Source of the DNA: Streptomyces tendae
GTDB taxonomy: Bacteria > Actinomycetota > Actinomycetes > Streptomycetales > Streptomycetaceae
NCBI RefSeq assembly: GCF_014650435.1
Contig: NZ_BMUY01000007.1
Coordinates: 186,001 to 250,000, forward strand
Direction of reading: 5' to 3'
Length of the DNA: 64,000 nt
Part shown: positions 44,292 through 49,211 of the stretch, one piece after another
Numbering within the stretch: position 1 is the stretch's first letter
How the letters are laid out: each line of letters opens with the position of its first letter
Made by a program: the position numbers and the translations under genes
The notes under the pieces: model-generated
The model's database searches: none
Seen by the model: the letters and a program-made list of their open reading frames with translations, nothing else
What the model was told of the DNA's origin: nothing

Positions 44292-45245
44292 CTACCGAAA
44301 GCCGAGGTACGGGTCGCCGGTGCCGACCAGCTCGGCGCTGACGGCCCACAGGCGGGCAGCGACAGCCGGATCGGCCATGTGGGACGGGACGGGCTCACGC
44401 CTCGGGAGGCCGCGCAGGCCGAAGACCCGCGGACCCCACAGCTGCCCTCCGAGCACCTCCGGGTCGAGGACGGCCCGGACGACGGGCCACGCTCCGGCGT
44501 CCTTGCCCTGCACCAGGACGCCGGCGGGCACGGCGCGCAGCCGTTCGCCGGGGGTCGTCACGCACACCGGCGGGCGGGACGGGGTGAGGGAGTCCAGCGC
44601 GCCGCCGGGGTGAGCCACCACGCTGAGCACCGTGCTGCCGACGGCACGCAGGCGGCGGTCGAGTTCGAAGCCGAAGCACATCTGTGCCAGTTTCGATCGG
44701 CCGTAGGTGCGCTTGGGCCGGTAGTCCCGGGCCGACTGCGGGTCGTCCAGGTCCAGGCGCTCGGACCGCGCCGCGAAGCTTCCCACCGTCACGACGCGGC
44801 CCGCCGGCGCCGCGGACAGCAGGGGTGCCAGCCACTTGGTCAGCGCGAAGTGGCCCAGGTGGTTGGTGCCGAACATCAGCTCGTGGCCGTCCCCGGTCTC
44901 CCGGCGCGGCGGGTCGTCGAGCGCGACCCCCGCGTTGTGCACCACCGCGTCGAGACGATCGAGGTCCAGCCTGTCCACGGCGGTCCTGAGGGACGCCAGG
45001 TCGGCGAGGTCCAGTGGGAGGTGCCGCACCTGCGCGCCGGGGACGCGTGCGCGGATCGAGGCCATGGCGGCGCCGGCCTTCGCGCCGTCCCGGCTGCCCA
45101 GTACGACGACGGCGCCGGTGGCGGCGAGCTGCTCCGCGGCAAAGTAGCCGATACCGGCGTTGCCCCCGGTGACCAGGAAGCTCCTGCCCTGGGCAGACGG
45201 CAGGCGGTGCACGTCCCACGACCGGCTCCGGGATGCGGAAGACAC
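44292..45245 (-). CDS. Short-chain dehydrogenase/reductase (retinol/protochlorophyllide-reductase-like)
   Basis: 317-residue SDR. The chosen GTG at 45245 follows AAGGAG by nine bases; a longer in-frame start exists upstream. The nucleotide loop TGGNAGIG (26-33), NNAG-equivalent HNAGV, and catalytic YGRSK are present, as is the FGTNHLGHF segment typical of retinol-dehydrogenase-like SDRs. It follows the six-cysteine peptide cassette on the same strand but is separated from the exporter gene by 162 bases. That gap contains five helically phased TGTCGG repeats, implying its own promoter. The substrate is unknown. Confidence 0.9.
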   Translation of the reverse strand: MSSASRSRSWDVHRLPSAQGRSFLVTGGNAGIGYFAAEQLAATGAVVVLGSRDGAKAGAAMASIRARVPGAQVRHLPLDLADLASLRTAVDRLDLDRLDAVVHNAGVALDDPPRRETGDGHELMFGTNHLGHFALTKWLAPLLSAAPAGRVVTVGSFAARSERLDLDDPQSARDYRPKRTYGRSKLAQMCFGFELDRRLRAVGSTVLSVVAHPGGALDSLTPSRPPVCVTTPGERLRAVPAGVLVQGKDAGAWPVVRAVLDPEVLGGQLWGPRVFGLRGLPRREPVPSHMADPAVAARLWAVSAELVGTGDPYLGFR

Positions 45246-45319
45246 GATGACAGACTCCTTGTGCTCAGGGGGAAGCGTGCTCAGTGGGAGCACCGACCCG
45301 CCCAAGGTCGCAGCCTGCG

Positions 45320-45370
45320 CCGACAGATCTCCGACAAGAGCGCCGACATGGCGCCGACAGATCTCCGACA
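45320..45370 (-). promoter_or_regulatory. Five phased TGTCGG direct repeats upstream of the SDR gene
   Basis: Read on the minus strand, TGTCGG occurs five times, with plus-strand copies CCGACA at 45320, 45331, 45343, 45354 and 45365. The intervals are 11, 12, 11 and 11 bases, about one helical turn each, so all copies face the same side of the DNA. The array includes two exact 20-base copies (45317-45336, 45351-45370). It lies 75-125 bases upstream of the SDR start. Such phased direct repeats are typical of cooperative activators, for example SARP proteins. Confidence 0.75.
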
Positions 45371-45407
45371 GGTCACCTCACCACGGACCCACCACCACAC
45401 TCAGCCC

Positions 45408-47270
45408 TTAGGGCTGATACCCGTCGGCCTGGACGGTGAAGAGCCGGGCGTACGTACCGGCCTGGTCGAGCAGTTCGGCGTGGGAGCCCTCCTCGCTGAC
45501 CCGGCCGTCGGCCAGGACGACGATCCGGTCCGCGTCCCTGACCGCACCGAGCCGGTGGGAGATCAGCAGACTGGTGCGGCCCGCCCGGTATCGCCCCAGC
45601 CGCAGGTGGATGTCGTACTCGGCCTCCGCGTCCAGACCCGAGCTGGGCTCGTCCAGGATGAGCAGGTCCGGATTCCTGCGCAGGAACGCCCGGGCGAGGG
45701 CGAGGCGCTGCCACTGTCCACCGGAGAGCAGTGCCCCGGCGTCGTCGTCGCCGTCGGCGGCGAAGACACGGCTCAGCATGGTGTCGTAGCGGTGCGGCAA
45801 CTTCGCCAGCACGTCGTGCACGCCGGCCTCCCGCGCGGCGGTGCTGAGCCTCGCCGGATCGTCGAGCGCCCGCACGTCGCCGACGGCGATGTTCTCGCCG
45901 GCGGTGAGGTCGTAGTTCATGTAGTCCTGGAACACCGCGCCGAGCCGACGGCGCAGCTCCCGCACAGGTACGCGGCGGATGTCGACCCCGTCCCACAGGA
46001 TTTCGCCCTGAGTCGGGTCGTAGAACCGGCACAGCAGTTTGACCAGTGTGCTCTTCCCGGCACCGTTGTGCCCGACCAGGGCGACGGACACGCCACGCGG
46101 GATGAACAGGGTCACGCCGCGCAGTACCCAGGGCTGGTCGTCGCCGTACCGGAACCAGACGTCCCGCAGCTCTATGCCCCGGCTCAGCGCGGGGAGCCGG
46201 TCGAGGAGGACATCGTCGGCCGGCGGTCCGAGATCCGGCCCGGCCTCCAGAACCGCCACGTAGTGGTTCAGCAGCAGCAGTTGGTGGTGCCCGTCGGCGA
46301 GGGAGCCGACGAGACCGGACAACGCGCCCTGCACACCCACGACAGCGGCCACGAACAGGGAGACGTCACCGGCCGTCAACTCTCCCCGTCTCGCGGCGAG
46401 CACCGCCCAGACCAGTCCGCCCCCGGAAACCAGTGCGCCGAGCAGTGCGAGACCCGACTGGGTGACCAGCTCCCTGCTCTCCACCAGCCGTCGTTCGACG
46501 TCCGCCGTGCGCCGTTCACCGAGCATCCGGCCCTTGAAGAAGTCACCGGCCGCGAAGAGCCGGATCTCCTTGGCCGCGTCCAGACTCGACAGCAGGGACT
46601 GGTAGAAGAACTCCCTGCGCTGCGCCGAACTGATGCGCCAGGCGCTCTTCGCGCGACGTCGGGACAGCCGCAACTCGGCCACCAGCGCGGGTACGGCCGC
46701 CGCGGCGACGAGCGCGGTCATCACCGGGCTGATGACGAACAGCGCGACGACGAACCCGATGACGCCCAGGGCCCCACCGGCGATCCTCAGCCCGGTCTCC
46801 ACGACATGGCCGACGGTCTGGCTTCCCGCGGACTGCGCCATCCGCAACCGGTCCTGGAAGCGCGGGTCCTCGAACCTGGCGAGACCGGCGAAGGAGTTGA
46901 CGACCGTGAAGAGCCGGTCCACCGCACGCATGCCCGCCGCCCGATTGAGCCGTGCCCCCAGGTACTGGCTGAGGTGCGGCAGCAGCGCCGCCACCAGTCC
47001 CAGCAGGCCGAGCCCCAGGGCCGGCCCGAGCAGAGCCGCCTGGCTCGCACCGGTCAGCCGGTCCAGGAGGAGCCGGGTGAGCCAGGCCACCCCCACGGGG
47101 ACCACCGCGACGGCGACGGCGACGGCGACGAGGCCCGTCACGTGTGCGGGCGCCGACCGCCAGGCGAGCGAGAGCGCACTGCGGGCGGCGGCGAACGCCT
47201 CGCGCGGCGCGAGCTGCTCCTTCCCGCCGCCCCTGCGGCGCCCCGGCTCCTGCCTCGTGTTCTTGGTCAT
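45408..47270 (-). CDS. ABC exporter (fused permease-ATPase) of the six-Cys peptide cassette
   Basis: 620-residue exporter-type transporter. The start overlaps the thioredoxin gene's stop (ATGA). A membrane domain with about six helices spans 40-340. The ATPase has Walker A GHNGAGKST, Q-loop VFQDYMNYDLT, signature LSGGQWQR, Walker B LLILDEPS and switch His ISHR. It lacks an N-terminal C39 peptidase domain, so any leader removal must be done by another enzyme, plausibly the S26 peptidase of the same operon. Likely cargo: the small cysteine-rich peptide encoded at the start of the cassette. Confidence 0.92.
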   Translation of the reverse strand: MTKNTRQEPGRRRGGGKEQLAPREAFAAARSALSLAWRSAPAHVTGLVAVAVAVAVVPVGVAWLTRLLLDRLTGASQAALLGPALGLGLLGLVAALLPHLSQYLGARLNRAAGMRAVDRLFTVVNSFAGLARFEDPRFQDRLRMAQSAGSQTVGHVVETGLRIAGGALGVIGFVVALFVISPVMTALVAAAAVPALVAELRLSRRRAKSAWRISSAQRREFFYQSLLSSLDAAKEIRLFAAGDFFKGRMLGERRTADVERRLVESRELVTQSGLALLGALVSGGGLVWAVLAARRGELTAGDVSLFVAAVVGVQGALSGLVGSLADGHHQLLLLNHYVAVLEAGPDLGPPADDVLLDRLPALSRGIELRDVWFRYGDDQPWVLRGVTLFIPRGVSVALVGHNGAGKSTLVKLLCRFYDPTQGEILWDGVDIRRVPVRELRRRLGAVFQDYMNYDLTAGENIAVGDVRALDDPARLSTAAREAGVHDVLAKLPHRYDTMLSRVFAADGDDDAGALLSGGQWQRLALARAFLRRNPDLLILDEPSSGLDAEAEYDIHLRLGRYRAGRTSLLISHRLGAVRDADRIVVLADGRVSEEGSHAELLDQAGTYARLFTVQADGYQP

Positions 47271-49019: not shown

Positions 49020-49211
49020 CTACATGCGGCAGCCGCAGTAGCCGACCCGCTGGAGGTCCTCGCACGTCTCGTACCACATCAGCGTGGTGGTGCGCCCCTC
49101 GCAGCTTCGGTAGATGCACTCGCTCTGCCAGCAGTCGGCCGCCGACGCACTCGCCTTCGGGGCCACCTTGTCGAGCAGACGATCCGAGATCGTCCGCAGT
49201 TGTACGAGCAT
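49020..49211 (-). CDS. Six-cysteine small peptide, candidate exported precursor
   Basis: 63-residue peptide preceded by a strong GGAGGAGAGG ribosome site. The N-terminal 26 residues look like a leader: an amphipathic MLVQLRTISDRLLDKVAPK, then the small-residue stretch ASASAA. The core carries all six cysteines (27, 32, 37, 50, 59, 61) with aromatic and polar residues between and ends CGCRM. There is no classical hydrophobic signal peptide, so export through the ABC protein is more likely than through Sec. It is the first gene of a same-strand set for a MauE-like protein, S26 peptidase, thioredoxin and exporter. No lanthionine or radical-SAM enzyme is encoded nearby, so disulfide bonding is the simplest modification. 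Bioactivity is unknown. Confidence 0.8.
   Translation of the reverse strand: MLVQLRTISDRLLDKVAPKASASAADCWQSECIYRSCEGRTTTLMWYETCEDLQRVGYCGCRM

What the first reader, a model, noticed from the sequence alone, without database searches (positions are those of the whole stretch)
45317..45370. Five TGTCGG repeats on one face of the helix before the SDR gene
CCGACA occurs at 45320, 45331, 45343, 45354 and 45365, intervals 11, 12, 11, 11. Two 20-base blocks are identical. Regular one-turn spacing of a hexamer is very unlikely by chance and is the pattern of cooperative activator binding. It sits in the only long gap inside the cassette.
Basis: seen in the sequence. Interest (0 to 1): 0.66.

Follow-up and report, generated by a model that had tools for sequence, protein, structure and literature searches.

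The report
Five-copy SARP-type activator operator array
Five evenly spaced copies of a short DNA word sit where an activator protein would have to bind to switch on a detoxification-type enzyme gene, and the same arrangement precedes a drug pump and other detox-type genes in many Streptomyces genomes.

Summary
In detail: five TGTCGG copies at 45370..45320 on the - strand, spaced 11, 11, 12, 11 in transcription order; 60 simulated windows gave no chain longer than 3. The array is a promoter element that travels with the SDR gene, not with the peptide cassette beside it. Of 37 SDR orthologs from the genus, 35 have at least two phased copies, the last one 10 bp before a NANNNT -10. The same design precedes a leaderless DrrA-type pump gene next to a large SARP regulator: a phased pair (at most 2 mismatches in 12) in 97 of 97 such loci. 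It also precedes FAD monooxygenases and other detox-type genes. In the window the two nearest copies fall at -40..-30 and -29..-19, the register of the repeats bound by AfsR in its cryo-EM complex, if +1 is 45296 (inferred). Best reading: a five-site operator of a SARP-family activator, most likely the pump-linked SARP (own genome C19:60330). No binding is shown. Main rival: PafBC, whose box and spacing are the same, but whose own-genome sites read here are mostly single-box, with TANNNT and no TG. The neighbouring HTH-ricin protein is unlikely to be the binder.

The parts
45365..45370 (-). TGTCGG copy 1 (most upstream, starts about -74)
45354..45359 (-). TGTCGG copy 2 (about -63)
   Evidence: in several close relatives two copies 11 bp apart form an upstream pair
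45343..45348 (-). TGTCGG copy 3 (about -52); an extra copy in the gap that separates the two pairs of several close relatives
45331..45336 (-). TGTCGG copy 4 (its 11-mer at about -40..-30)
45320..45325 (-). TGTCGG copy 5, promoter-proximal box (its 11-mer at about -29..-19)
45304..45312 (-). Predicted extended -10: TG at 45312-45311, C, then GACCTT at 45309..45304; 10 bp between copy 5 and the hexamer
   Evidence: TG and NANNNT conserved in the pump promoter logo
45296..45296 (-). Predicted transcription start (+1), transferred from the leaderless pump promoters; not measured
   Evidence: inference
45277..45293 (-). Dyad GTGCTC-N5-GAGCAC in the predicted SDR 5' leader, also seen in several close relatives
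44292..45245 (-). SDR oxidoreductase, GTG start, AAGGAG at 45260..45255; the gene the promoter points at
45401..45417 (.). Perfect 7-bp inverted repeat around the stop codon of the upstream ABC gene; possible terminator that separates it from the SDR promoter
   Evidence: read by eye
45408..47267 (-). ABC exporter of the peptide cassette, upstream of the array; absent from the collinear locus L091, which has the array

Best explanation
The array is a five-site operator that forms the upstream part of the SDR promoter. Shown here: phased TGTCGG direct repeats end 10 bp before an extended -10 (TG-N-GACCTT), occupying the place of a -35 box, and this layout is conserved with the SDR gene in most orthologs read, in different neighbourhoods. 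The same layout stands before a leaderless DrrA-type pump gene next to one large SARP regulator, and before FAD monooxygenases and other detox-type genes. Inferred: SARP protomers bind side by side, one per 11-bp repeat; the two nearest copies recruit RNA polymerase with HrdB in place of a -35 contact (sigma adaptation, as for AfsR), and the three upstream copies add cooperative occupancy. Inferred with less certainty: the activator is the pump-linked SARP (own genome C19:60330), whose NTPase/TPR part would sense a toxic small molecule or a phosphorylation signal, making the SDR part of a chemical-defence regulon.
For: SDR orthologs: 35 of 37 have box-N10-NANNNT with at least 2 phased copies. 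Pump beside SARP: 97 of 98 SARP loci hold it (the miss is a 4.2-kb contig); 97 of 97 pump promoters have an 11-bp pair with at most 2 mismatches in 12, 85 exact; 95 distinct sequences. Under a stricter copy rule 96 of 97 have two or more. Random 75-bp segments of the same loci, pump promoters not excluded: 29 of 3880. The 18 loci came from genomes without the strict pattern. Strict pattern in 246 genomes: 141 hits against 1 for the reversed pattern, 81 of them 4-6.5 kb from a listed SARP. Geometry: with +1 at the pump ATG the repeats lie at -40..-30 and -29..-19, the afs-box frame (PMC10936776, passages and section 7). The AfsR-contacted T-38 and T-27 correspond to the third base of TGTCGG, and the contacting Arg92 is kept. 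The SARP is homologous to AfsR (E 4.3e-32); its recognition helix is nearly invariant in 114 loci and differs from AfsR at four positions.
Against: No binding or expression data. The proximal box equals the PafBC-type box at the same distance from the -10. Arrays survive in some genomes without a detected close SARP: G145 has pump and array while the SARP is missing from its usual place; the SDRs of G112 and G224 keep three phased copies (assemblies 91% and 88% complete); G157 also matches. The SARP's own upstream region in this genome holds one lone TGTCGG, no phased array. The third spacing in the window is 12 bp. Array-SARP co-occurrence (114 of 218 against 5 of 28 genomes, p=0.0005) is partly built in, because most arrays lie beside the SARP. 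Broader patterns in the own genome are not above control (5 against 6; 2 against 1). None of the 11 BTAD matches of the genome lies in the window.
Confidence: 0.7

Rival explanations
1. PafBC, the WYL-domain DNA-damage activator, uses the copy nearest the -10 as its -26 box, and the other copies are accessory or relics.
For: The pump consensus box TTGTCGGTGG and its distance to the -10 equal the PafBC-type pattern TGTCRGTG-N8-TANNNT (pattern recalled), which has 51 matches in this genome against 0 for the reversed pattern. Streptomyces encode PafBC homologs (PMC9380542, passages). Some arrays persist without the SARP.
Against: The 30 of 51 PafBC-type sites read are mostly single-box (tandem copy in 2 of 30), have A at box position 5 in 20 of 30 and TG at positions 13-14 in 0 of 30. 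Pump promoters: two or more copies in 96 of 97, TG in 88 of 97, A at position 5 in 2 of 95, T at the first -10 base in 0 of 95 (the anchoring rule favours G at position 5 somewhat). In the PafBC complex PafB's HTH engages the -26 motif while PafC's contacts sigma (PMC11804915, passages), so phased copies have no evident role there.
Confidence: 0.13
2. Another SARP, AfsR or another OmpR-type direct-repeat binder encoded elsewhere reads the array; the pump-linked SARP is only a neighbour.
For: The genome has 11 BTAD matches. Arrays persist in G145, G112 and G224 without a detected close relative of the pump-linked SARP. The operator geometry is common to the SARP family.
Against: The one other array with the promoter layout found in this genome lies beside this SARP. 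The pump-array link holds in 97 of 97 SARP loci. The AfsR repeat CGTT(T/C)ATCGNN (PMC10972967, passages) is a different sequence.
Confidence: 0.13
3. The array is a recent tandem duplication without function.
For: Two identical 20-base blocks 34 bp apart suggest a duplication in this lineage.
Against: Hexamer phase and distance to the -10 are kept in 35 of 37 orthologs while linkers differ. The duplication probably only enlarged an existing operator.
Confidence: 0.02
4. The HTH-ricin neighbour or another cassette regulator binds the array.
For: Proximity within the window only.
Against: A relative was found in 1 of 26 SDR regions; L091 has the array and SDR without it. No TGTCGG lies between the peptide gene and this regulator gene.
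Confidence: 0.02

Closest known systems
afs box / AfsR (large SARP, S. coelicolor)
   Same: Two 11-bp direct repeats ending just before a weak -10, same register (-40..-30, -29..-19); regulator with ODB-BTA DNA-binding part plus NTPase and TPR parts (PMC10936776, passages and section 7)
   Different: Repeat word TGTCGGYGGNN against CGTT(T/C)ATCGNN (PMC10972967, passages); 3-5 copies in 93 of 97 pump promoters; AfsR residues R87, T88, Y89, S91 replaced by Q, A, L, G by my alignment; fails the AfsR equivalog cut-off
PimR / SARP-LAL heptamer operators
   Same: Heptamers every 11 bp, cooperative binding, two or more needed, three repeats in the main operator (PMC5930380, passages)
   Different: Heptamer CGGCAAG; the operator described is that of pimM in an antibiotic cluster; does not overlap the -35
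DnrI control of drrAB/drrC
   Same: A SARP bound at a DrrA-type pump gene (only the title of Prija et al. 2017 seen, in the reference list of PMC10972967)
   Different: DnrI is a small SARP inside an antibiotic cluster (recalled); here a large SARP found in most genomes of the sample (218 of 246 at E<=1e-50, paralogs possibly included)
PafBC -26 promoters
   Same: Box TTGTCGGTGG and its distance to the -10; sigma adaptation
   Different: Mostly single box, TANNNT -10, no TG in the 30 own-genome sites read

Membership tests
SARP-type operator | Direct repeats at 11 or 22 bp | tested here: met
   Window gaps 11, 11, 12, 11 in transcription order; orthologs mostly 11 and 20-22, some 30-32 and a few others
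SARP-type operator | 3' repeat adjoining the -10 (8 bp rule; -29..-19 in the AfsR frame) | tested here: met
   Proximal TGTCGG 10 bp from GACCTT, so 8 bp if the box is taken as 8 bp; the frame depends on an inferred +1
SARP-type operator | Bound by a SARP and needed for activation | not testable with these tools
   No assay available
SARP regulator family (C19 protein) | OmpR-type DNA-binding domain plus BTAD | tested here: met
   PF00486 29.9 bits (cut-off 26.2), PF03704 140.9 (22.1)
AfsR | NCBIfam AfsR equivalog NF053617 | tested here: not met
   173 bits against 1430
PafBC-dependent promoter | Box TGTCRGTG 8 bp from the -10 | tested here: inconclusive
   Window TGTCGGCG: one base off, spacing right; the pump consensus meets it
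PafBC-dependent promoter | TANNNT -10 | tested here: not met
   GACCTT in the window; T at the first -10 base in 0 of 95 pump promoters
DrrA drug-pump ATPases (pump gene) | TIGR01188 cut-off | tested here: met
   402.2 against 312.45 bits
Tet(X) tetracycline monooxygenase (L147 target) | NF033111 cut-off | tested here: not met
   129 against 750 bits; related to TetX-type flavoproteins only, best PDB match AbsH3

The most novel reading that the evidence does not exclude
An uncharacterised large SARP, found in most of the Streptomyces genomes sampled, is a STAND-type small-molecule sensor running a chemical-defence regulon: its own DrrA-type pump plus a changing set of enzymes (SDR, TetX-like and aromatic monooxygenases, SnoaL-like proteins, hydrolases) that move between genomic sites with a portable 2-5-copy TGTCGG promoter. 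Because the proximal box is also a PafBC box, some of these promoters could also take a DNA-damage input.
Probability: 0.45. Interest if true: 0.75.

Novelty: new variant of a known kind. Interest (0 to 1): 0.6.

Why it matters
SARPs are known mainly as switches of antibiotic gene clusters. A widely shared SARP operator in front of a drug pump and several detox-type enzymes would give Streptomyces a common chemical-defence regulon, tie an orphan AfsR-like regulator to a DNA word and a gene list, and offer a predictor of resistance-type genes: search for phased TGTCGG before an extended -10. It also suggests that two sigma-adaptation activators, SARP and PafBC, may read nearly the same box at the same place.

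Tried and rejected
Rejected: a dispersed repeat (most arrays with the promoter layout precede a few gene families, and linkers diverge); the HTH-ricin neighbour as binder; array as part of the peptide cassette; autoregulation of the SARP through an array (none upstream of its gene in this genome; the extra pairs at 3-8 kb in the 80 loci all proved to be pump promoters of loci with short flanks). PafBC was first my preferred reading and became a rival.

Weak or negative: three-copy pattern in the own genome not above its reversed control (one of its loci, C7:152096, was only glanced at); two-copy-plus-(-10) pattern 2 against 1 control. The loose three-copy pattern matched 195 of 246 genomes but many listed matches are simple repeats, so I drew nothing from that count. 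Paper searches for TGTCGG with Streptomyces and direct repeat (11 papers, one read in passages), SCO2259 (name recalled by me, zero papers), SARP with pump, monooxygenase and regulon (2 papers, listing only), TGTCGGTGG (270 papers hold the letters, 20 listed, none on this operator by title), and large SARP with efflux and resistance (3 papers, listing only) showed no account of this operator. Only open-access PMC papers are held.

Limits: the strict pattern was designed after seeing the first promoters, so its -10 part is partly circular. One search's SARP list was cut off, so 81 of 141 is a lower bound. Targets other than the pump, SDR and three scanned proteins were named by BLAST to these or by eye. 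L213 and L264 were dropped from the logo because the box lay too near the segment edge.

Full report
Observation. On the coding strand of the SDR gene they read TGTCGGAGATC TGTCGGCGCCA TGTCGGCGCTCT TGTCGGAGATC TGTCGGCGCAGGC TG C GACCTT. TGTCGG as such is not enriched in the window (66 against 65.7 expected), but no other hexamer chain at 10-12 bp spacing exceeds 3, and 60 Markov simulations never exceeded 3.

Where it sits. The array lies between the stop codon of an ABC exporter (ends 45408) and the GTG start of an SDR (45245), both on the - strand. The exporter closes a cassette (Cys-rich 63-aa peptide, MauE, a protein that looks signal-peptidase-like but has no Pfam hit, and a thioredoxin/MauD-like protein with weak hits). 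The SDR is not bound to it. Of 246 genus genomes 58 have an SDR match at E<=1e-60, a few of them partial or only 46% identical. In the 13 regions first read the neighbours mostly differ (L096 and L097 share theirs). L091 shows the window's own neighbourhood with array and SDR but without the cassette ABC, MauE and HTH-ricin genes.

Conservation with the SDR. In SDR orthologs from 37 genomes, 35 show a box (at most one mismatch, ending GG), 10 bp, then NANNNT, with at least two copies at 10-12 or 20-22 bp; the two that fail this rule (L013, L027) still carry TGTCGG copies. TG of an extended -10 is present in 26 of 35. Several close relatives have two pairs (11 bp within a pair, 20 between); the window has an additional copy in that gap. 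Some truncated or frameshifted SDR genes still carry the array (L156, L157, L167, L172).

The same promoter elsewhere. A second array in the own genome (C19:55393) ends 10 bp before CATCGT, which ends seven bases before the ATG of a leaderless ABC ATPase. It passes the DrrA subfamily cut-off, and a 1246-aa regulator with OmpR-type DNA-binding, BTAD, NTPase and weak TPR matches is encoded convergently behind it. Of the first 20 non-SDR matches with 11-bp spacing, 16 are this pump with at least part of the SARP. The strict pattern gave 141 hits in 119 of 246 genomes, with 1 reversed-pattern hit; 81 lie 4-6.5 kb from a listed SARP start (the target gene was checked directly only for those fetched). 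I assigned the other 60: 17 pump, 16 SDR, 8 TetX-like monooxygenase, 8 aromatic-hydroxylase-type monooxygenase (one scanned by Pfam, the rest by eye), 2 SnoaL/DUF4440-like (one scanned, 24.5 bits, just under the cut-off of 25.2), 1 alpha/beta hydrolase and 1 SGNH hydrolase (by eye), 3 unassigned, 4 without a convincing gene.

Sample chosen by the SARP. Starting from the SARP protein instead (the best 80 of 563 relatives) and from 18 SARP loci in genomes that lacked the strict pattern, the pump is present in 97 of 98 loci, and all 97 pump promoters carry a phased pair with at most two mismatches in 12 (85 exact; 95 distinct sequences). Under the copy rule, 96 of 97 have two or more copies and 93 have three to five. 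Random segments of the same loci score 29 of 3880. The logo of 95 promoters shows boxes at 0, -11 and -22, TG at +13/+14 and NANNNT at +16..+21, with the ATG usually at +29.

Which protein. With +1 at the pump's A of ATG the two nearest repeats are -29..-19 and -40..-30, as in the afsS promoter complex, where SARP protomers bind side by side and hold sigma region 4 (PMC10936776, passages and section 7). The AfsR-contacted T-38/T-27 fall on the third base of TGTCGG. By my alignment Trp74, Pro79, Arg92 and Arg94 are kept, Lys95 is Arg, and four helix positions differ from AfsR but are nearly invariant in 114 loci (some loci are the same strain). So the C19 protein is a SARP but not AfsR, and a changed repeat word is what one would expect. 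None of this shows binding.

PafBC as the serious rival. TGTCRGTG-N8-TANNNT has 51 matches in the own genome and none reversed, so a PafBC-type regulon seems to exist here; the proximal box of the pump consensus equals that box. But the 30 sites read are mostly single (tandem copy in 2), have TG in 0 of 30 and A at position 5 in 20 of 30, whereas pump promoters are tandem, have TG in 88 of 97, A at position 5 in 2 of 95, and T at the first -10 base in 0 of 95. In the PafBC complex PafB's HTH engages the -26 motif while PafC's contacts sigma (PMC11804915, passages).

Results against my reading. SARP-array co-occurrence is 114 of 218 against 5 of 28 genomes (p=0.0005). It is partly due to physical linkage. 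A relaxed search found fragments or diverged relatives (59% or more identical) in six of the 28, and a C-terminal piece in a seventh (G102). That leaves 21, three of which (G047, G105, G120) hold 50-52% relatives that I counted as paralogs; of the 21, G145 and G157 have strict arrays. G145 keeps pump and array while the SARP is missing from between pump and the usual next gene; the SDRs of G112 and G224 keep three phased copies. Loss may be recent, assemblies are incomplete, or another SARP may serve.

Verdict. A conserved activator operator at the SDR promoter: about 0.9. SARP-family binder: about 0.8. The pump-linked SARP in particular: about 0.7. The inducing signal is unknown; a toxic aromatic compound is a guess from the gene list.

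Noticed in passing
window 49023-49211 (-) to 45408: A 63-aa Cys-rich peptide gene heads a MauE / signal-peptidase-like / thioredoxin-like (MauD) / ABC exporter cassette: looks like an oxidatively folded, exported peptide. The cassette ABC, MauE and HTH-ricin genes are missing from the collinear locus L091; a diverged copy (46% ABC identity) with a related HTH regulator lies beside the SDR in L092.
   Followed up: partly
own genome, 51 places, 30 read as L056-L085: TGTCRGTG-N8-TANNNT PafBC-type promoters, 51 against 0 in the reversed control, although PMC9380542 (passages) says an initial search suggested that the M. smegmatis PafBC motif is not conserved in S. venezuelae.
   Followed up: partly
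window 45277-45293: Dyad GTGCTC-N5-GAGCAC in the predicted SDR leader, shared with several close SDR relatives: possible second operator or hairpin.
   Followed up: no
window 45401-45417: Perfect 7-bp inverted repeat around the stop codon of the cassette ABC gene, possible terminator without a T run.
   Followed up: no
L169, L181, L193: Array promoters without a target gene that I could name downstream.
   Followed up: partly
L161, L169, L180, L181: These array promoters share a TATC-containing word upstream and a CACCTTTCGAG stretch at the -10, yet precede different genes, as if promoters were swapped between genes.
   Followed up: no
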